Origin: Clostridia bacterium
GTDB lineage: Bacteria > Bacillota_A > Clostridia > Christensenellales > CAG-138
DNA length: 5,990 nt
NCBI GenBank assembly: GCA_017553815.1
Contig: JAFZJT010000267.1
Location: forward strand, 1 to 5,990
Direction: 5' to 3'
The position numbers and the translations under genes were made by a program. How positions within the stretch are numbered: position 1 is the stretch's first letter; every line of letters begins with the position of its first letter. A model generated the notes under the pieces. It saw nothing but the letters and a program-made list of their open reading frames with translations. It ran no database searches and was not told the origin of the DNA. Shown here piece by piece: positions 1 to 5,990 of this stretch.

Positions 1-215
1 AGATACTTTAAAAAAGTATAAGAACGAGATCCTCAATTACTTTCGTTCGCATATAACCAATGCGATCTGCGAAGGGATCAACAGTATGATCCAAGCCGCA
101 AAAAGGAAAGCAAGAGGATATCGCACCTTTGAGGGCTTCTCCTCTATGATCTACCTTGTTGCAGGCAAACTGAAGCTCGCTTGTCTGAATCCGTTACGAT
201 AATGGGAGTAGAGCC
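1..215 (+). mobile_element. Right end of an ISL3-family insertion sequence (left part outside the window)
   Basis: The transposase stop codon is followed at 204-215 by GGGAGTAGAGCC. Read inward from the outside this is GGCTCTACTCCC, which fits the GG-starting terminal inverted repeats of ISL3-type elements, so I place the element end at about 215. ISL3 elements usually duplicate 8 bp of target; the matching candidate here is TATTTAAT (216-223). The left end is not in the window, so neither the inverted repeat partner nor the duplication can be confirmed. The family assignment rests on the protein; the exact boundary is inference. Confidence 0.6.
2..202 (+). CDS. ISL3-family transposase, C-terminal 66 residues (partial)
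   Basis: Only the end of the gene is present; it enters from the left edge in the frame starting at base 2 and stops with TAA at 200-202. The peptide contains NYFRSHITNAICEGINS followed by MIQAAKRKARGYRTFEGF, the conserved C-terminal block of ISL3 (DDE_Tnp_ISL3) transposases. The glutamate of EGINS (residue 24 of the fragment) is expected to be the third acid of the DDE catalytic triad, and the basic KRKARGYR stretch follows it as in family members. The gene cuts and joins DNA at the IS ends. The stop lies only about 13 bp from the probable IS end, a compact arrangement. Whether the full gene is intact cannot be judged from this window. Confidence 0.9.
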   Translation, partial: DTLKKYKNEILNYFRSHITNAICEGINSMIQAAKRKARGYRTFEGFSSMIYLVAGKLKLACLNPLR

Positions 216-971: not shown

Positions 972-1259
972 ATGAAGAACGCTACAGCATTCGTTTGTAT
1001 TCTTGAATATGCTCCGTTTGAACCGGAGCGCTATGCGGAGCTTTACACGCCGCTGCGCCGGGTGGGGCTTGAGGGCATCACAAGTCCCGCTTTGCGTGTG
1101 CAGAGCGCGGCGGCGGAGCTTCCGACGAACGAATGTATCAAGGTCATAGAGGATTTCTATAGGGACTCCGACCTCGTGGAGCACCCCGATTCCCAAGCTG
1201 TTTATAAGGCGCTTACGGAAAGACTCGGAGCAGGGCATTTGAAAATGAATTGCCAATAA
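972..1259 (+). CDS. Conserved-looking small hypothetical protein (95 aa), possibly leaderless
   Basis: The frame is closed by a TAA at 960-962, so ATG 972 is the first possible start; no Shine-Dalgarno sequence lies in the preceding bases. The codon choice, with G/C-rich third positions in the middle of the gene, resembles real genes nearby, which argues against a random frame. The protein is soluble, with no signal peptide. A strand (residues 4-13, TAFVCILEYAP), a helix rich in Arg/Tyr (17-31), a strand-like segment (33-43), a helix (about 77-86) and a final HLKMNCQ strand suggest a small alpha/beta, possibly ferredoxin-like, fold; this is inference from residue pattern only. It has its own candidate promoter and a downstream hairpin and so is probably transcribed alone. 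No function is proposed. Confidence 0.7.
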   Translation: MKNATAFVCILEYAPFEPERYAELYTPLRRVGLEGITSPALRVQSAAAELPTNECIKVIEDFYRDSDLVEHPDSQAVYKALTERLGAGHLKMNCQ

Positions 1260-1263
1260 TTTT

Positions 1264-1318
1264 AAGCCACCTGTTGAAATATCCTCGTGCGGATATGCTC
1301 AACGGGTGGCTTCGGTTT
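1264..1318 (+). terminator. Long terminator-like hairpin after the 95-residue gene
   Basis: AAGCCACC (1264-1271), then GTTGA (1273-1277), then ATATCC (1279-1284) pair with GGATAT (1291-1296), TCAAC (1299-1303) and GGTGGCTT (1305-1312). The loop is TCGTGC. T1272 faces G1304, a G-U pair only if the + strand is transcribed, which favours this orientation. The U-run after it is interrupted (TTCGGTTTAT), so it is not a textbook terminator. The hairpin starts 4 bases after the stop codon. Confidence 0.6.
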
Positions 1319-1370
1319 ATGCGGCCTTTTCGGAAGCTTTTGGCAGCGGCGCATCTGTATTTATCATAGC

Positions 1371-1401
1371 AAAAAACGGCATCCCGATTGGACACCGTTT
1401 T
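1371..1401 (-). terminator. Rho-independent terminator of the recombinase gene
   Basis: Read on the minus strand, AAAACGG (1401-1395) pairs with CCGTTTT (1379-1373), with a partial TCC/GGGA pairing inside, and the stem runs into six T residues. It begins 32 bases after the recombinase stop at 1434, the expected position for its transcript end. Confidence 0.6.
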
Positions 1402-1433
1402 CTGTGGTACTCGACCAAGCAGGGCGGGCGAAC

Positions 1434-3062
1434 TCAGAAAAAATCGTGGTTTTCAGCAGCTTCTTCATCCTCGAGCATACTTTTGAGCATTATGCGAAGT
1501 TGCTCTTCTTGCTCCGGTGTATGTTCGGAGAATAAGCCTTTGTCGAATATTTCAAATATCCGCTTCCTGTTTGCAAGCATTTCAGACATCTCTTCTATGC
1601 GGATTTCACGGGGATCGGATGTGAACTTGAACAGCAGAACTATCTTGTTGTTGTAGATCACTACGCGGTCTATCAGATCCCATTTATACGCTTTTTTATC
1701 AACGATTGAATCAAAGTATTTCAGGATCGTTCCGAACTCAGGGCCGCTTTCACGCCTTGCTTGCTCCGCTGCGATTGCCTCGCTCTGCTGCTGTATCTGC
1801 GCTTCAAGCTCACGAATCCTATCCGATAGCGTTGAAGTATACCCGCCGTTCTCAATTGCTCTCATAATGTTCTGGAGCTTTCTGCGGCAGGTTTCACGCT
1901 CAGCCTCAAGTGATGCAATATAAGCGTCGTTGCCTGCGTATTGCTCCCTGCATTGATTGTAGCAGTACAGGGACACAGCTATGCGATACTCTGATTTTTG
2001 AAGCAGCTCATTGTAAGCTTCATTGACGATCTCCTCAAGCAGCTCTTTGCGTTTTGGTTTCAGCTCGCAATGCTTATGATGCTTGCGGGATTTGCAGACG
2101 TAATAGTAATAAATTGCGCCGGTTTTACTTGTGCCGCTCTTGCCATGCACCGTGCTTCCGCAATACCCGCAATAGGCGTGTTCGGACAGCTCAAAGTCGG
2201 CAATCGGCAGATCGGGACAAAGCTTTTTTCTCACGCCGGAGCCGCCAAGCGCATTACGCCGTGTTCGTTCCTGTGTTTTTGCGAACAGCTCGTCGTCGAT
2301 TATTCGGGGTATGCCACCCGGGATAACATAGGAGCCCCATTTATATTCGCCTATATACGCACGGTTTGTAAGAATATGAGAAACGGAAGAAATAGAAAAC
2401 GGCTTTCCTGTGATGTAACGAAGTCCGGCGCTGTTCAGATCATCGATTATTTGGCGCTTCGGCTTTCCTGCGGCATATTCCTCAAATATGCGTTTAACAA
2501 CCGGTGCGGTAGCTTCGTCAATGCAGTATGGCTGCTTCACTTTCCCTATTAGCCCGTAAATCGGAGAACCGTTGTAAAGCCCGTTCTCGGCTCTGTGGTT
2601 CATTCCCCTGCGAACATTCTCGGCGAGCTGCATTACATACAACTGTGCGCTTATACCCGCCATACCGGTTAGGTACATATCGACCATCATGTTGCCGGTG
2701 CTCGGCTCGGTGATACTGATAACCTGTGTTCCGTGACGGCGCAGCCAGTCAAGCGCACGGGTAAGCTCGGCATTATCACGCGAAAGCCTGTCGAGCTTCC
2801 ACACGATGATGTATGCGGGGCGGAGCATATCCACGTCGTACAGCATTGCGCGGTACGCCGGGCGCTCATCGTTGGTGCCGCTGATGCCCTCGTCACGGTA
2901 TATATGCCTATCATCCAGCTTGTAGCCGTGAGCTTCTGCATACTCGCGGCACATCTTTATCTGTTGATTTATCGAGGTATCCTGTTTGTCCGTTGAGCAG
3001 CGACAGTAGGCAAAGGCCATACTGCCTATATTCTGTTTGAATTCATACTTGCTTAATGACAT
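1434..3062 (-). CDS. Large serine recombinase (542 aa), site-specific integrase/transposase
   Basis: The enzyme cuts and rejoins DNA at attachment sites through a phosphoserine intermediate. The N-terminal resolvase domain (about residues 15-150) carries YCRCSTDKQ, with catalytic Ser23 and Arg21, and the KLDRLSRD motif (89-96) holding further active-site arginines. A Recombinase domain follows (about 165-270, with SSVSHILTNRAYIGEY). Then comes a zinc ribbon, CGYC (298-301) with C323 and C332, and a charged coiled coil (about 380-404 and 412-435), as in large serine recombinases of ICEs, Tn4451-type transposons and phages. The usual zinc-ribbon lead-in is FELSEHAYCGYC here. ATG 3062 is preceded by GGAG with an 8-base gap. 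The length and all motifs indicate an intact protein. It has its own promoter and terminator. Its att sites are not identifiable; the palindromic block just upstream is one possible site of action. Confidence 0.95.
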   Translation of the reverse strand: MSLSKYEFKQNIGSMAFAYCRCSTDKQDTSINQQIKMCREYAEAHGYKLDDRHIYRDEGISGTNDERPAYRAMLYDVDMLRPAYIIVWKLDRLSRDNAELTRALDWLRRHGTQVISITEPSTGNMMVDMYLTGMAGISAQLYVMQLAENVRRGMNHRAENGLYNGSPIYGLIGKVKQPYCIDEATAPVVKRIFEEYAAGKPKRQIIDDLNSAGLRYITGKPFSISSVSHILTNRAYIGEYKWGSYVIPGGIPRIIDDELFAKTQERTRRNALGGSGVRKKLCPDLPIADFELSEHAYCGYCGSTVHGKSGTSKTGAIYYYYVCKSRKHHKHCELKPKRKELLEEIVNEAYNELLQKSEYRIAVSLYCYNQCREQYAGNDAYIASLEAERETCRRKLQNIMRAIENGGYTSTLSDRIRELEAQIQQQSEAIAAEQARRESGPEFGTILKYFDSIVDKKAYKWDLIDRVVIYNNKIVLLFKFTSDPREIRIEEMSEMLANRKRIFEIFDKGLFSEHTPEQEEQLRIMLKSMLEDEEAAENHDFF

Positions 3063-3096
3063 CTATCATACTCCGTTCTTTGCGCTGTTTTCTTCA

Positions 3097-3125
3097 ATTG
3101 TATCAAAGTCAAACGGGGATTGCAA
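3097..3125 (-). promoter_or_regulatory. Recombinase promoter
   Basis: On the minus strand, TTGCAA (3125-3120, 4 of 6 at -35) and TACAAT (3102-3097, 5 of 6 at -10) are spaced 17 bp apart. Transcription would begin near 3090, about 28 bases before the ATG, with the GGAG ribosome site at 3074-3071 in between. Confidence 0.65.
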
Positions 3126-3162
3126 AAATGTGGCGTATATATTTTCTTGCGATGAAAGAGTA

Positions 3163-3378
3163 GCTTGAAAGCGAAGCGACAAGCCAAGCGAACGACGAGA
3201 TTGTTTTTTAGCAGCGTGAGCGCAGTAAGCGCCCGCAGACAGCCGAGAGGCTGTCAAGGGTGACGCCGACAAACGCTCCGGTGGAGCGTTTGAAAGGCGT
3301 CAGTCCTGCCCGATAGGGCCGCAAATGTGCCGAAGGTGCATTTGCGTCAGGACCGCTTATGCTCTTTTTGTTTTTTCG
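3163..3378 (+). ncRNA. Candidate structured RNA or structured DNA: cluster of GC-rich hairpins ending in a U-rich tract
   Basis: No credible gene lies here. In order: a weak stem GCTTG/CAAGC (3163-3184); GCGC/GCGC (3220-3232); a perfect 7-bp stem GACAGCC/GGCTGTC with a GAGA (GNRA-type) loop (3238-3255); and a two-part hairpin TGACGCC/GGCGTCA enclosing CAAACGCTCC/GGAGCGTTTG with loop GGT (3261-3302). Last is a three-way junction closed by GTCCTG/CAGGAC (3303-3308/3348-3353), holding CCC/GGG (3309-3318) and CGCAAATG/CATTTGCG (3320-3346). The inner arm extends only through U3328-G3338 and G3329-U3337, wobbles that exist on the + strand transcript and would be A/C mismatches on the other. A U-rich tract (3365-3376) follows. 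No clear + strand promoter was found. An RNA role is inference; an origin or recombination site remains possible. Confidence 0.45.
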
Positions 3379-3413
3379 ATCATTTGCGCTTTATTTGCGC
3401 AAATTCGAAAAAA
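3371..3413. repeat. 17-bp-stem palindrome containing TTTGCGCAAA units
   Basis: TTTTTTCGA (3371-3379) and ATTTGCGC (3382-3389) pair with GCGCAAAT (3397-3404) and TCGAAAAAA (3405-3413); two bases (3380-3381) are bulged and the loop is TTTATTT. ATTTGCGCAAAT at 3393-3404 is itself a perfect 12-bp palindrome, so two alternative foldings compete. Confidence 0.7.
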
Positions 3414-3417
3414 CCAA

Positions 3418-3666
3418 GGCGGCGTATAGGAAAATAATTTGCGCAAAATCGGGTGTTTCTGCGCTAATTCGATTTTGGCTGCGCAAATTGTTTGAAAAAA
3501 AGCCCTGTTTATAAGGATTTATTTTGCGCAAATGCGTGGTGCGTTTTGACGCATTTTGTGCAAAATATTGTATTGATGTGGTAATGATAACATCATGATA
3601 AGATCATTACCTTATCATGATAACATCAATACTGATTTTTATAAACAGGGTGGGATTCACGCCGCC
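3418..3666. other. Nested, multi-branched inverted-repeat element (candidate origin, recombination site or large RNA)
   Basis: Outer arms GGCGGCGT (3418-3425) and ACGCCGCC (3659-3666) enclose second arms CCCTGTTTATAA (3503-3514) and TTATAAACAGGG (3639-3650), 12 bp and perfect. Between the left arms lies a 16-bp hairpin: AATTTGCGC+AAAATCG (3436-3451) against CGATTTT (3470-3476) and GCGCAAATT (3481-3489), with a 4-base bulge. Inside the second arms are a hairpin of about 17 bp (TATTTTGC at 3520-3527 with GCAAAATA at 3560-3567, extended to CGCATTTTG) and the large palindrome at 3570-3632. All arms nest without conflict, giving one closed multi-branched fold. The motif TTTGCGCAAA recurs through it. 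No coding frame is convincing. It sits between the amidotransferase gene and the recombinase. Structure is seen directly; function is not known. Confidence 0.6.
3570..3632. repeat. 63-bp AT-rich palindrome with competing inner arms
   Basis: GTATTGATGT (3570-3579) and ACATCAATAC (3623-3632) are perfect 10-bp arms. Inside, GGTAATGAT (3580-3588) pairs with ATCATTACC (3603-3611), or CATGATAAG (3594-3602) pairs with CTTATCATG (3611-3619); the two inner pairings cannot fully coexist. ATGATAACATCA is also a direct repeat (3584-3595 and 3617-3628). Confidence 0.8.
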
Positions 3667-3672
3667 GATAAG

Positions 3673-3693
3673 AAAAAAAACCGTTTACGGGTT
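3673..3693 (-). terminator. Weak terminator candidate for the amidoligase operon
   Basis: On the minus strand a short AACC/GGTT stem (7-base loop CGTAAAC) runs directly into eight T residues. It lies about 160 bases after the amidotransferase stop at 3855. The long T-run is right, but a 4-bp stem is poor, so this is tentative. Confidence 0.3.
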
Positions 3694-3720
3694 AATTTTG
3701 GACGCGGCCGCATCCTTTGG

Positions 3721-3771
3721 CTCGAAGCCATTTCGAGCACTTATTGCGCTCCCTTGGTGATGGCAATAAGT
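3721..3771. repeat. Two hairpins in the spacer downstream of the amidotransferase gene
   Basis: CTCGAA/TTCGAG (3721-3726/3732-3737, 5-base loop) is followed at once by perfect 9-bp arms ACTTATTGC (3739-3747) and GCAATAAGT (3763-3771) around 15 bases. A longer-range pair GCCGGTG (3823-3829) and CACCGGC (3860-3866) flanks the stop codon of the amidotransferase gene. No gene is visible between 3667 and 3854. Confidence 0.55.
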
Positions 3772-3854
3772 AACGCGTTCAGGTTGTTCCGGTTCGCGCC
3801 TATAACCCAACAAGAATTATCCGCCGGTGTTGGTTTATGCGCCTAACACGATTA

Positions 3855-4745
3855 TTAAGCACCGGCAGACAGCAGCAGTTCCTCTATCTCATCAAGCGAA
3901 AAGTTGAGTTCAAGCAGCCTATCCACTGTGCCCTCGTCAAGACCGGCGAAAACGGCATAGTCCTTCAGCAGCTCGATGTACTCGTTTCTTTCGCTCGTGT
4001 ATGCGCCGAGGCCAAAGCTCGCATACGGATCGAAACGCAGGTGCTCTGCATCTCCGTTTGCGGATATTCCGATAATATCGCCGCAGTGCAGCTCAACGGG
4101 CAGGTTCCAAGTTGAGTTCAGAATCCCGCTTGCATTGAGAGCCGCATCAAGCACGGCCTCAGTAGAAGCATAAACAAGACAGCCGCTTTTAGGAAGCAGC
4201 CGTACCTCAAGCGGATTATCGCCCTTTATAAAGAATAATCGGTCTTTATCATCGAGCAGCGTAAAGCAGAAGCTTCCATCGATAGCTTCCGCCATTTTTT
4301 GAAGCCTGTCGAGCGAAAGCCCGCCGTAATGCTCGATTAGCTGAACTGCGATATAGCTGTCGGTCTCGATATTCGTATTCGGAAGGCGGAGCTTGCGCCG
4401 CAGCGCTCTGTCGTTCACTATAGCGCCGTTATGCGCCAATGCAAATCGGGTGTTCCCCACAGCACCGATAAAAGGATGATTATTGCGATTATGCTTCTCC
4501 GATCCCTGCGTTGTCATTCGAGTATGTCCCATCACACAGCGAACGCCGTCGGGTATGCGCGCTCTTAAAAGATGCCCCGGCAGCGGCTTTTTCAATATGC
4601 GGAGCCTGTCGCCCGTGTTGTACGCTATACCGGCGGCATCCGTTCCGCGCGCCTCCGCAGCTTTTAAAAGCGCGCGGATAAGCCTTGTTTTCTCCTTGCC
4701 GCTCAAAGCAAGGTGGGGATCTATAATGCCGAATAAGCAGCACAT
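3855..4745 (-). CDS. Class II glutamine amidotransferase (296 aa), partner of the amidoligase
   Basis: The protein should hydrolyse glutamine to glutamate and ammonia with an N-terminal cysteine nucleophile. I place the start at ATG 4745, not at an upstream in-frame ATG (4868), because only this gives MCCLFGI with Cys at residue 2, required after Met removal; SD GAGGTGA (4759-4753) sits 7 bases ahead. Family motifs in order: RGTDAAG (33-39), GHTRMTTQG (73-81), NNHPF (88-92), HNG (105-107), TDS (128-130), matching the GlmS/PurF-type glutaminase domain (GATase_6). No isomerase or phosphoribosyltransferase domain follows, so it is neither GlmS nor PurF. The last 45 residues (VDRLLELNFSLDEIEELLLS) look like a small helical bundle. 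Residue 3 is Cys where Gly is usual. It overlaps the upstream amidoligase by one base, implying coupled expression; cytosolic. Confidence 0.9.
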   Translation of the reverse strand: MCCLFGIIDPHLALSGKEKTRLIRALLKAAEARGTDAAGIAYNTGDRLRILKKPLPGHLLRARIPDGVRCVMGHTRMTTQGSEKHNRNNHPFIGAVGNTRFALAHNGAIVNDRALRRKLRLPNTNIETDSYIAVQLIEHYGGLSLDRLQKMAEAIDGSFCFTLLDDKDRLFFIKGDNPLEVRLLPKSGCLVYASTEAVLDAALNASGILNSTWNLPVELHCGDIIGISANGDAEHLRFDPYASFGLGAYTSERNEYIELLKDYAVFAGLDEGTVDRLLELNFSLDEIEELLLSAGA

Positions 4746-4759
4746 TAGTCCGTCACCTC
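4743..4759 (-). promoter_or_regulatory. Translational coupling junction (TAATG) with internal SD
   Basis: The amidoligase stop TAA (4747-4745) shares its last base with the amidotransferase ATG (4745-4743). The SD GAGGTGA (4759-4753) lies within the last codons of the amidoligase, 7 bases before the ATG. This geometry favours reinitiation and a balanced output of the two proteins. Confidence 0.8.
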
Positions 4760-5818
4760 GCTTACAAGCCCGCGCTCTATAAGATAGCCTTTCTGTTCGC
4801 TCTTTTCTATCGAATGGGCAAAGCTCTGCCATGAAAGCGACTTTATGCTTCGATCGCTCGTTCTGCACACAAGGTCTATCAAGCTGTCCGCAAGCTGAAG
4901 CGCCGCCAGCAGCGTGTTCAGCTTCAGCGTACCGCGAAATATCCGCAGCTCCACCGTGTTAGCATTCACAAGATTCACGGCGGCATATCTTTCGCCGCGC
5001 CCTTTCGCGCTCTCAAGCAGCTCGCTTGGGTGCTCCGTAAGCCCATAACGCTGAGCCCATTGCTCAAGCTGTTCCTCGGTTCTGCGTGAAAACACCAGCA
5101 GCTCTCTCCAATTCTTTTCGAAGAACCATAAAAGGCGCGCTATCGCCGCATCCTGCTCCGCTTCGCTTTCTCCGAAGGCTGCTCTGCTTATATGGATGTG
5201 CAGCCCGCAGGTATCTGCATCATGGCTTGTATAGCCCATCGAATCCGCAGCAAGCAGCAGCCCCGCCCACGGCATCACCGTTTCGTGATAGGCAAGGCTC
5301 ATCGGGTGAGTTACAAGCTCGAAACCGCAGGCAAGGCTGCCTTCGTGCTTGCAATACAGGTTTTCCGCTTCCGCATTTGCGATTTCAAGCAGCGCTTTCG
5401 CATTTGATCCGCTCTCGCCGCCGCCGTCTATCTCAAGCTCAACTCCGAAGAACCTCGGCCCCTCACCGTGAAACACGGGCATTGGCTTATAGCCGTATTC
5501 GTGTATCGCGGGCTCGTATTGCTCCACCGTGCAGCAGCTTTCGCAGATGTACGGTTTGCTTCCGAGCGCATTTTCGCGCTCGATCCATCTGCCGCAGCAG
5601 CTACAGCGAACGAGCCGCCTTTCGGCGCAGCTTTCACAGTAGGCATTATCGTTCGCATACTCAAGATCGCCCGTCCATTCGCGCGAGCCGCATTCCGCGC
5701 ATACGGCGGTTTCAAGCTCAAGGCAATCGGGGCAGAACGAAGCATTGCAAAAATGCGTTATCTCGTTGCTTGCAAACTCTCTTTCGCAGCCGAAGCATAT
5801 TGCGCTTTCTCTTTCCAT
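4745..5818 (-). CDS. Amidoligase (glutamine-synthetase-fold, Amidoligase_2) with N-terminal zinc-binding cysteine array, 357 aa
   Basis: Predicted ATP-dependent COOH-NH2 ligase. I choose ATG 5818 because AGGGAG (5831-5826) lies 7 bases ahead; ATG 5824 is too close to it and a GTG at 5854 lies in a hairpin. Residues 8-96 hold six CxxC-type pairs (8/11, 29/32, 40/43, 61/64, 72/75, 92/95) plus C24, a run of zinc knuckles or ribbons. The catalytic domain starts at FFGVELEI (123-130, E127 and E129 expected to bind metal-ATP) and continues with GFELVTHPMS (165-174), GLHIHISR (205-212) and VNL..NTVELRIFRGTL (281-298, with R292 and R295). These are the conserved blocks of Amidoligase_2, a family known to neighbour glutamine amidotransferases, exactly as here. 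The substrate is unknown: peptide, cell-wall or small-molecule carboxylate are all possible. No signal peptide, so cytosolic. The operon may start upstream of the window edge. Confidence 0.88.
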   Translation of the reverse strand: MERESAICFGCEREFASNEITHFCNASFCPDCLELETAVCAECGSREWTGDLEYANDNAYCESCAERRLVRCSCCGRWIERENALGSKPYICESCCTVEQYEPAIHEYGYKPMPVFHGEGPRFFGVELEIDGGGESGSNAKALLEIANAEAENLYCKHEGSLACGFELVTHPMSLAYHETVMPWAGLLLAADSMGYTSHDADTCGLHIHISRAAFGESEAEQDAAIARLLWFFEKNWRELLVFSRRTEEQLEQWAQRYGLTEHPSELLESAKGRGERYAAVNLVNANTVELRIFRGTLKLNTLLAALQLADSLIDLVCRTSDRSIKSLSWQSFAHSIEKSEQKGYLIERGLVSEVTD

Positions 5819-5850
5819 TGTCATGCTCCCTGTTTTTTCAGTAAAACCCG

Positions 5851-5868
5851 ACACCGCGTTAGCGGTGT
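5851..5868 (-). promoter_or_regulatory. Leader hairpin upstream of the amidoligase
   Basis: ACACCGC (5851-5857) and GCGGTGT (5862-5868) form a perfect 7-bp stem with a 4-base loop. On the minus strand it is followed by CGGGTTTTAC, giving an attenuator-like look, and it ends about 20 bases before the SD at 5831. It could act as an attenuator, an mRNA-stabilising 5' element or the terminator of a gene beyond the right edge. The minus strand between it and 5972 is pyrimidine-rich with no convincing promoter. Confidence 0.5.
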
Positions 5869-5972
5869 TCCGCAGGGGAGCGCTAAAAAAGGGAGAGTAT
5901 TAGAAAAGAGAGATTGATAAAAAGACAGTTGAAAGCGGCAAGCAGAGTAAAGGATTAAAAGCGAATACCCCC

Positions 5973-5990
5973 GTTACCGCTTGTGGTAAC
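5973..5990. repeat. Short inverted repeat at the right window edge
   Basis: GTTACC (5973-5978) and GGTAAC (5985-5990) pair around GCTTGT. The arms may continue past the edge, so size and role cannot be given. Confidence 0.5.

What the first reader, a model, noticed from the sequence alone, without database searches (positions are those of the whole stretch)
3163..3666. 500-base noncoding block almost wholly made of nested hairpins
From 3163 to 3666 nearly every segment can be placed in a stem: small GC-rich hairpins, a three-way junction, then long AT-rich palindromes enclosed by two further pairs of perfect arms (12 bp and 8 bp) about 120-230 bases apart. The arms nest consistently, which chance would rarely give. 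It has the look of a large ornate RNA, or of a replication/transfer origin of a mobile element. I do not recognise it as a known class.
Basis: partly seen in the sequence, partly recalled or inferred. Interest (0 to 1): 0.82.

Follow-up and report, generated by a model that had tools for sequence, protein, structure and literature searches.

The report
Palindrome nest beside recombinase gene
A 530-base stretch between two genes on a probably mobile piece of a gut bacterium's genome really is folded almost end to end, but it looks like a patchwork of small mirror-image DNA modules, one of which recurs behind transfer-RNA genes of related bacteria, rather than one new conserved RNA.

Summary
3150-3680 folds at -231 kcal/mol (z -13.9, 0 of 100 shuffles as good), the 12-bp and 8-bp arms exist, and a second assembly (MAG RUG13931, 94% identical there) has the block at the same place. 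One ornate RNA or an origin is not supported: no Rfam, plasmid or phage match, and no second copy among 103 family and 396 order genomes, where few candidates per genome were scored. No Rep or relaxase was recognised in the proteins tested.

The block is composite. Its GC-rich half holds a 21-base hairpin that recurs, loop free, at 17 places in 10 other family genomes (scrambled control 0 of 103). Its AT-rich half repeats TTTGCGCAAA (3 exact copies, against 3 in 400 kb of the sister genome). Its tip palindrome is rearranged and weaker in the sister. I read it as a palindrome-module nest upstream of a large serine recombinase gene.

The hairpin led to a bigger find: a covarying foldback element of about 125 nt whose model matches in 75 of 103 family genomes; 42 of 55 hits examined follow a tRNA whose T-arm they copy. 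The block is not a member.

The parts
1434..3062 (-). large serine recombinase gene (542 aa); the block lies upstream of its start codon
   Evidence: Pfam Resolvase 2e-32, Recombinase 1.1e-21, Zn_ribbon_recom 4.5e-9; best NCBIfam models CcrB, CcrC, XisF, all far below their cut-offs; nearest relatives 99% (1 contig), 65%, 63%, then about 41%
3097..3125 (-). promoter-like site of the recombinase gene, between the block and the gene
   Evidence: consensus scan TTGCAA-17-TACAAT with TG before the second hexamer; 5 sites found in 3000-3900 where shuffles give 1.8, so a lead only
3150..3366 (+). D1: GC-rich multibranched half closed by AAAGAG/CTCTTT (3155-3160/3362-3367) and followed by a T run
   Evidence: MFE fold; no substitution between the two strains from 3162 to 3394
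3238..3255 (+). 7-bp hairpin with GAGA loop
3270..3292 (.). dispersed hairpin module AAACGCTCC-GGT-GGAGCGTTT (core 3271-3291), inside arms 3261-3267/3296-3302
   Evidence: pattern with free loop at 18 places in 11 of 103 family genomes, scrambled palindrome 0 of 103; R1 model hit 22.3 bits
3320..3346 (+). 12-pair hairpin with two G-T pairs, GAA loop
   Evidence: not dispersed: loosened pattern found in 2 of 103 genomes, one being the sister
3367..3417 (+). hairpin with T-run and A-run arms (12 of 13 pairs) around ATTTGCGC/GCGCAAAT
3418..3666 (+). D2: AT-rich half closed by GGCGGCGT/ACGCCGCC (3418-3425/3659-3666)
3432..3493 (+). hairpin with 14-nt arms (one G-T pair) and inner 8-bp arms 3444-3451/3470-3477
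3503..3650 (+). 12-bp perfect arms CCCTGTTTATAA/TTATAAACAGGG enclosing two hairpins
   Evidence: I9; 11 bp remain in the sister
3520..3567 (+). hairpin with 13-nt arms (one G-T pair); one pair longer in the sister through an inserted A
3570..3632 (.). tip palindrome (30-nt arms, 80% complementary) made of GTAATGAT/ATCATTAC words; 11 nt longer and rearranged in the sister, which keeps 11-nt outer arms (91%) and a 9-bp inner palindrome but folds less well
3394..3564 (.). TTTGCGCAAA words at 3394-3403, 3438-3447, 3523-3532 (exact) and 3555-3564 (1 mismatch); half sites at 3383, 3481 and, in the recombinase leader, 3079
   Evidence: only 3 exact copies in 400 kb of the sister genome
3855..4745 (-). 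class II glutamine amidotransferase-domain gene, same direction as the recombinase, ends next to the block (start chosen by analogy with the 296-aa ORF of the sister)
   Evidence: Pfam GATase_6 4e-16; sister ORF
4745..5854 (-). Amidoligase_2 gene
   Evidence: Pfam PF12224 7e-7; a 96% relative on 2 contigs, the longest 298 kb, then about 52%

Best explanation
The block is a nest of independent palindromic modules in the 500-base upstream region of a large serine recombinase gene on a probably mobile stretch of an uncultured clostridial genome; it is not one conserved large RNA.

Shown: it is real and extreme; it exists in two strains; one hairpin (3270-3292) is a dispersed module of this bacterial family; the AT-rich half repeats one palindromic word; the tip palindrome has turned over between the strains; substitutions elsewhere avoid breaking pairs.

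Inferred: modules are copied in and rebuilt at the DNA level (hairpin exchange or template switching at folded strands). They are kept because the folded region insulates the recombinase gene from read-through of the GATase-amidoligase genes that run towards it, with the repeated word possibly a regulator's binding site.
For: The hairpin core (18 fixed bases, free 3-base loop) recurs at 18 places in 11 of 103 family genomes, 15 of 18 identical through the loop, against 0 of 103 for a scrambled palindrome of the same make-up and 0 for the tool's backward control. It sits in several settings: tRNA tails, a tandem array at 68-base spacing (L003/L199), L195/L196, and this block. D2 is built on TTTGCGCAAA: 3 exact copies in 139 nt against 3 in 400 kb of the sister genome. 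The tip differs by 11 inserted bases and, as aligned, 9 substitutions in 3590-3616, and the sister keeps only 11-nt outer arms and short inner palindromes. Other regions of the same genome, among them both sides of another recombinase-like gene (L185:2701-4065), reach similar z. No conserved homologue was found. Substitutions avoid pairs: 0 of 6 breaks in 3150-3569 (expected 3.0, P 0.009) and 3 of 13 in 3150-3680 (expected 7.2, P 0.012); 9 of 22 substitutions, in the unalignable tip, were left out. The three genes 5854-4745, 4745-3855 and 3062-1434 run in one direction. Two terminator-like sites on the - strand lie in D2 (3464-3441, 3622-3591; three sites in all in 3000-3900 against 1.4 expected, sd 1.2).
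Against: Only one of the block's hairpins is shown to be dispersed; the 3320-3346 hairpin is not (2 of 103 genomes, one the sister). The sister's tip folds much less well (-9.2, z -2.2, against -14.8, z -4.3, as DNA), so that palindrome was not simply rebuilt as a palindrome. No enzyme that would move or copy the modules was identified: Y1 transposase domains occur in 7 of 11 genomes with the hairpin and 6 of 11 chosen without it. Insulation was not measured. D1's closing helix followed by a T run would also suit a discrete RNA.
Confidence: 0.45

Rival explanations
1. A discrete structured non-coding RNA on the + strand, about 220 nt (D1, ending at the T run 3363-3376) or about 530 nt (D1+D2), made by the mobile element and acting in its regulation.
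For: + strand folds better than - strand (-231 against -200, z -13.9 against -12.5). In helices common to both strand folds the four wobble positions are all G-T on the + strand and none A-C. D1 is closed by its own ends and followed by CTCTTTTTGTTTTTT. A T-G to C-G change at 3161 keeps the closing helix. No substitution falls in 3162-3394.
Against: The only + strand promoter-like site upstream in 3000-3900 is 3042-3069, some 80 nt before D1, in a scan that finds 5 sites where shuffles give 1.8. Each whole-strand fold also finds its own wobbles (16 G-T on +, 7 on -), so the asymmetry is weak. Other stretches are as free of change: 249 nt inside the recombinase gene and 305 nt (2805-3110) mostly in it. 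No relative outside one MAG, no Rfam match, and the tip is rearranged.
Confidence: 0.25
2. A DNA operator or iteron array: D2's TTTGCGCAAA copies bind a regulator of the recombinase (or the recombinase itself), and hairpin folding is a by-product of a repeated palindromic word.
For: 3 exact, 1 one-mismatch and two half sites (3383, 3481) within 3383-3564 plus one half site in the recombinase leader at 3079; rare in the genome (3 in 400 kb). Spacing of seven sites picked by eye fits a helical repeat (P 0.011 with the period scanned 10.2-11.0, P 0.064 at 10.5).
Against: Explains D2 only. The arms extend well past the word (12-bp CCCTGTTTATAA arms, 8-bp GGCGGCGT arms). One exact copy is lost in the sister (3395 T to C). 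Phasing is suggestive at best and sites were chosen after seeing them.
Confidence: 0.17
3. Replication or transfer origin of a mobile element (rolling-circle dso/sso, oriT, or theta iterons).
For: Nested AT-rich palindromes and repeated words next to a recombinase; DNA that differs in left neighbourhood between strains.
Against: No Rep, relaxase or conjugation domain in the six window ORFs tested or in five further proteins of the 17-kb sister contig, four of the eleven without any Pfam match; no plasmid match to the block; of 349 plasmid records with a recombinase match 0 cover 80% of the protein.
Confidence: 0.06
4. The block is a diverged or broken member of the tRNA-tail foldback family described below, left behind by insertion.
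For: Shares that family's inner hairpin exactly and a similar layout of two adjacent nested hairpins (compared by eye).
Against: The family model matches only the 23-nt hairpin in the block (22.3 bits, E 0.005), while the 13 units that built it score 63-117 bits; no tRNA in the window.
Confidence: 0.07

Closest known systems
REP / BIME elements (repetitive extragenic palindromes, GTAG- and CGTC-tagged; PMC3733652, outline and abstract seen)
   Same: 20-40 bp dispersed palindromes in intergenic space, able to combine into larger structures, often downstream of genes
   Different: The dispersed hairpin has no GTAG or CGTC next to it here, has 18 copies over 103 genomes rather than many in one genome, and shows no link to Y1 transposases
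Large ornate bacterial RNAs (OLE, GOLLD, ROOL, HEARO; names recalled, not from a call)
   Same: Hundreds of bases almost fully paired, in Firmicutes or on mobile elements (recalled)
   Different: No Rfam 15 match at E up to 1; no conserved homologue found; tip rearranged between strains
Upstream regions and attachment sites of large serine recombinases (Ccr/TnpX/phage integrase type)
   Same: A recombinase with Resolvase, Recombinase and zinc-ribbon domains beside palindromic DNA; its 3' end faces the place where homology between the two strains stops
   Different: Known att sites are about 50 bp (recalled); a 530-nt nested block is not part of the recalled description. Of 45 recombinase loci with an upstream flank, 4 have an upstream window at z -8 or lower; the sister of ours is the most extreme at -15.2 from 10 shuffles
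Integron attC sites (recalled)
   Same: Cassette-like folded palindromes whose arms carry the recombination sequence resemble the tRNA-tail elements found here
   Different: No integron integrase sought; the arms here are tRNA T-arm copies; not tested

Membership tests
Any Rfam 15 family | score at or near the curated threshold | tested here: not met
   0 matches at E up to 1 in the window
REP elements | unpaired GTAG or CGTC tag at one end of a 20-40 bp palindrome | tested here: not met
   sequence beside 3270-3292 is GCCGA / AAAGG; definition from the abstract of PMC3733652
REP elements | high copy number in the host genome | tested here: not met
   one copy in G001, at most 3 in any of 103 genomes
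REP elements | associated RAYT (Y1 transposase) gene | tested here: inconclusive
   PF01797 in 7 of 11 genomes with the hairpin, 6 of 11 chosen without (12 of the 13 over the cut-off)
tRNA-tail foldback family (R1, found here) | full-length match to the covariance model | tested here: not met
   only model positions 24-46 match in the block
tRNA-tail foldback family (R1, found here) | outer arm complementary to the T-arm 3' strand of an adjacent tRNA | tested here: not met
   no tRNA in the window; 13 of 55 model hits also lack one within 900 nt
Conserved large structured RNA | pairs kept through compensatory changes in homologues | tested here: inconclusive
   only one 94% relative; 0 of 6 substitutions break pairs in 3150-3569 but no double change
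Conserved large structured RNA | a transcript with defined ends | not testable with these tools
   no expression data
Replication or transfer origin | Rep or relaxase gene in the same element | tested here: not met
   Pfam scans of six window ORFs and five sister-contig proteins; four of these eleven match no Pfam family, and the element's far end is not known
Large serine recombinase element | recombinase with catalytic, Recombinase and zinc-ribbon domains | tested here: met
Large serine recombinase element | both ends (attL, attR) and an empty site | tested here: inconclusive
   left border near window 1216-1260 where the two strains' homology stops; right end and empty site not found

The most novel reading that the evidence does not exclude
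This bacterial family has a system of travelling hairpin modules. The block beside the recombinase, the 68-base-spaced array in G080 and the tRNA-tail foldback elements (model matches in 75 of 103 genomes, outer arms copying their own tRNA's T-arm in the hits examined, only tRNAs reported by Rfam in the loci scanned) exchange the same hairpins, probably through folded single strands. The block would be the mobile element's own assembly of these modules, possibly picked up from or delivered to tRNA tails.
Probability: 0.25. Interest if true: 0.8.

Novelty: new variant of a known kind. Interest (0 to 1): 0.5.

Why it matters
By itself the block is a caution. Extreme, consistent nesting with no Rfam match can come from a patchwork of palindromic modules and a repeated palindromic word rather than from one conserved RNA. 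Through its one dispersed hairpin it leads to a strongly covarying element behind tRNA genes whose arms track the neighbouring tRNA and which I could not find in Rfam or in five paper searches. That makes two things testable: how tRNA loci gain such tails, and whether hairpin modules move between tRNA tails and mobile elements.

Tried and rejected
Rfam at E up to 1: nothing. blastn against plasmids and phages: nothing. Viral contigs with the recombinase (two stretches matched a pattern, none a relative) and with one block pattern: nothing. An alignment of recombinases found 117 relatives there, 80 kept, at most 43% identity over a short segment; not used further. Second hairpin as a dispersed module: rejected, 2 of 103 genomes. 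REP/RAYT link: no association. Block as a member of the tRNA-tail family: rejected. Covariance model of D1 (3236-3356 in the window, built from two near-identical sequences, so close to a single-sequence model): over 86 sources, 661 kb, only the two source copies score high (157 bits); the rest lie at or below 28.7 bits (L199) and cover or centre on the shared hairpin. D1 as unusually conserved: 234 nt without change looked striking, but 249 and 305 nt stretches occur in and beside the recombinase gene, so dropped. Assembly artefact: rejected by the second assembly. Wobble asymmetry: 4 to 0 in shared helices but 16 against 7 over the whole folds, so kept as weak. Tip palindrome kept as a palindrome in the sister: rejected in that strong form; only outer 11-nt arms and short inner palindromes remain. 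Paper searches on tRNA-tail palindromes and recombinase-linked RNAs (listings with the starts of abstracts, plus the outline and abstract of PMC3733652) showed nothing matching; five searches of one open library do not show absence from print.

Full report
WHAT IS THERE. The window carries, right to left on the - strand, an Amidoligase_2 gene (5854-4745), a class II glutamine amidotransferase-domain gene (4745-3855), the block, and a 542-aa large serine recombinase gene (3062-1434); a fragment of an ISL3-type transposase lies at 2-202. ARAGORN finds no tRNA and Rfam no match even at E 1.

THE OBSERVATION. The block folds far better than shuffled sequence on both strands (z -13.9 and -12.5), and the two 250-nt windows in it are the two most extreme of 29 along the window. 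It falls into a GC-rich half D1 (3150-3366), a bridging hairpin (3367-3417) and an AT-rich half D2 (3418-3666) that holds a tip palindrome (3570-3632).

A SECOND COPY. An exact 21-base pattern from D1, searched in the genome contigs, hit one record: MAG RUG13931, an uncultured Clostridiales bacterium (that RUG genomes come from the rumen is recalled). It shares window 1216-5990 at 96.4% identity, with the block at 94% and present once in that genome. To the left of about 1216 the two strains have different genes, so the shared stretch behaves like mobile DNA with one border there; the right border is beyond the window. Over the shared stretch there are 154 substitutions; the recombinase has 24 in 1629 bases. 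D1 has none from 3162 to 3394, but 249 and 305 nt clean stretches occur in and beside the recombinase gene, so this is not proof of constraint. Substitutions avoid breaking pairs of the + strand fold: 0 of 6 in 3150-3569 (expected 3.0, P 0.009) and 3 of 13 in 3150-3680 (expected 7.2, P 0.012). Nine of the 22 substitutions, all in 3590-3616 where the alignment is arbitrary, were left out. The tip has 11 extra bases in the sister. It keeps 11-nt outer arms (91% complementary) and a 9-bp inner palindrome but loses the 30-nt arms, and as DNA it folds at -9.2 (z -2.2) against -14.8 (z -4.3) in the window. So the tip turns over fast. Template switching at palindromes could drive this (general knowledge), but the sister's weaker fold gives no sign that a strong tip is needed.

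IS THE BLOCK UNIQUE IN ITS GENOME? No, though it is the most extreme 500-nt stretch among those tested. In 3288 windows of 250 nt from 20 contig ends of the sister genome plus its 17-kb contig, four other places reach shuffle z below -8 (60 windows were shuffle-tested). Two of these lie on either side of another recombinase-like gene, L185:2701-4065, whose N-terminal domain match starts at profile position 71; one of them is a tRNA-tail element. In 1640 windows of 500 nt the block has the lowest z (-9.7) of 20 tested, just ahead of another intergenic region on the same contig (-9.3). Around 51 large serine recombinase loci of the order (the sister's included), 4 of 45 upstream flanks and 3 of 48 downstream flanks reach z -8 (10 shuffles each).

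THE DISPERSED HAIRPIN. blastn of the block over the 103 genomes of the sister's family gave, outside the sister, five matches of 27-46 bases in four genomes. Four of the five are its hairpin AAACGCTCC-GGT-GGAGCGTTT; the fifth (G055) is a 27-base piece of D2. The hairpin pattern with a free loop occurs at 18 places in 11 of 103 genomes; a scrambled palindrome of the same composition occurs in 0 of 103, and the tool's own backward control is 0. Fifteen of the 18 are identical through the loop. ARAGORN finds a tRNA in 8 of the 14 hairpin loci scanned (the sister's own locus was not among them). Ten of the 18 places lie in those 8 loci; the other eight are three in a tandem array in G080, two in G052, one each in G051 and G054, and this block. 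The neighbouring hairpin 3320-3346 is not dispersed.

THE AT-RICH HALF. Three exact TTTGCGCAAA and one single-mismatch copy lie in 3394-3564, with a half site in the recombinase leader; the exact word occurs 3 times in 400 kb of the sister genome. Because the word is palindromic, many of the arms reported by the repeat finder are copies of it pairing with each other. Seven sites picked by eye are roughly in helical phase (P 0.011 with the period scanned, 0.064 at 10.5); suggestive only.

WHAT IT MOST LIKELY IS. A composite of palindromic modules in the upstream region of the recombinase gene, gained and altered at the DNA level and tolerated or kept because a folded spacer separates the recombinase gene from the genes transcribed towards it; the repeated word may be a binding site. 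The module nature of one hairpin, the second copy and the pair-keeping are shown; the copying mechanism and the insulating role are inferred. The terminator scan finds two - strand sites in D2 (3464-3441, 3622-3591) and one + strand site, three in all against 1.4 expected, which is weak support. A discrete + strand RNA remains the main rival (0.25): D1's ends pair and a T run follows, and in helices common to both strand folds the wobbles are all G-T on the + strand (4 to 0), though over whole folds the counts are 16 and 7. The one + strand promoter-like site upstream (3042-3069) is in a scan with an excess of chance-like sites. An operator array (0.17), a broken tRNA-tail element (0.07) and an origin (0.06) are less likely. 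On checking, the tip result weakened the copying inference and the terminator sites strengthened the insulating one; I left the odds as they were.

WHERE THE HAIRPIN LED. Ten of the hairpin's 18 places are inside a unit that follows a tRNA gene and its terminator. The unit runs: an arm complementary to the tRNA's T-arm 3' strand, a hairpin pair (GCCGC / inner hairpin / GCGGC), CGG, a second long hairpin, and then a copy of the tRNA's T-arm 3' strand and acceptor end, sometimes in tandem. A covariance model from 13 units (R1; 17 of 26 pairs with a change on both sides) matches in 75 of 103 family genomes, up to 22 per genome, at E 1e-3 (at most 34 candidates per genome scored), and in 38 of 396 genomes of an order draw that partly overlaps the family, at E 1e-6 (8 scored). 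On 55 hits from 35 chosen loci, 91.7% of cells pair against 71.7% shuffled and at most 49.3% when slid, with covariation score 0.492 against 0.138 (the alignment was fitted to the model, and the 13 building units are among the 55). A same-strand tRNA lies within 900 nt upstream in 42 of 55; 13 have none. For those 42, the complement of the unit's first 11 bases matches the last 32 bases of its own tRNA over 9.3 bases on average, against 5.5 for tRNAs dealt at random (0 of 500 shuffles as high; repeated units of one tRNA are counted separately). Of 20 regions that I picked from the hit list before knowing their tRNAs, 15 hold one. In 14 loci scanned at gathering thresholds, 10 of them with such units, Rfam reports only tRNAs. 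R1 matches only the 23-base hairpin in our block, so the block is not a member.

VERDICT. Observation confirmed; interpretation as one ornate RNA or an origin not supported; ordinary enough in parts, unusual as a whole, and valuable mainly for the module family it exposes.

Noticed in passing
L193:1429-1557, L200:1479-1605, L201:1479-1606, L203:1139-1412, L206:1271-1844, L185:4319-4450 and others: A roughly 125-nt foldback element behind tRNA genes (Val, Ser, Arg, Leu, Gly, Ala, Tyr in the hits examined), often in tandem, whose 5' arm is complementary to the T-arm of its own tRNA and which ends in a copy of that tRNA's 3' end; strong covariation, model matches in 75 of 103 family genomes, only tRNAs reported by Rfam in the loci scanned. 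13 of 55 hits have no tRNA close upstream. Looks like a new element family.
   Followed up: partly
L017:1165-1375, L024:1160-1360, L076:1187-1375, L019:1225-1400, L080:1175-1360: A conserved structured region of about 180-210 nt downstream of the 3' end of a large serine recombinase gene, followed in four of the five loci (all but L019) by a tRNA gene; 48 predicted pairs, 15 with a change on both sides in 5 sequences. Rfam reports no other family in these loci.
   Followed up: partly
L068:11001-11400 (mostly beyond the window's right end): A second strongly folded intergenic region on the same stretch, between the amidoligase gene and a leucine-rich-repeat/dockerin gene, made of serial hairpins including a long one around GCGAATACCCCCGTTACC (z -10.6).
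   Followed up: no
L003/L199 (G080:C35): A tandem array at 68-base spacing of hairpins carrying the same AAACGCTCC palindrome (some copies with a changed base), no tRNA found in the locus.
   Followed up: no
L195, L196, L204 (G051, G052): The same hairpin set into a GC-rich stretch near contig starts or ends, alike in G051 and G052, with no Rfam match; the tRNA-tail model matches L196 and L204 in part (32 bits).
   Followed up: no
L185:2701-4065: A second recombinase-like gene in the sister genome (454 aa; Recombinase and zinc-ribbon domains, N-terminal part of the Resolvase domain not matched) with strongly folded DNA on both sides.
   Followed up: partly
window 2-202: C-terminal fragment of an ISL3-family transposase at the window's left edge.
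   Followed up: no
window 3799-3815 against L001: A run of A in the MAG replaces an otherwise conserved stretch downstream of the GATase gene; possibly an assembly blemish.
   Followed up: no
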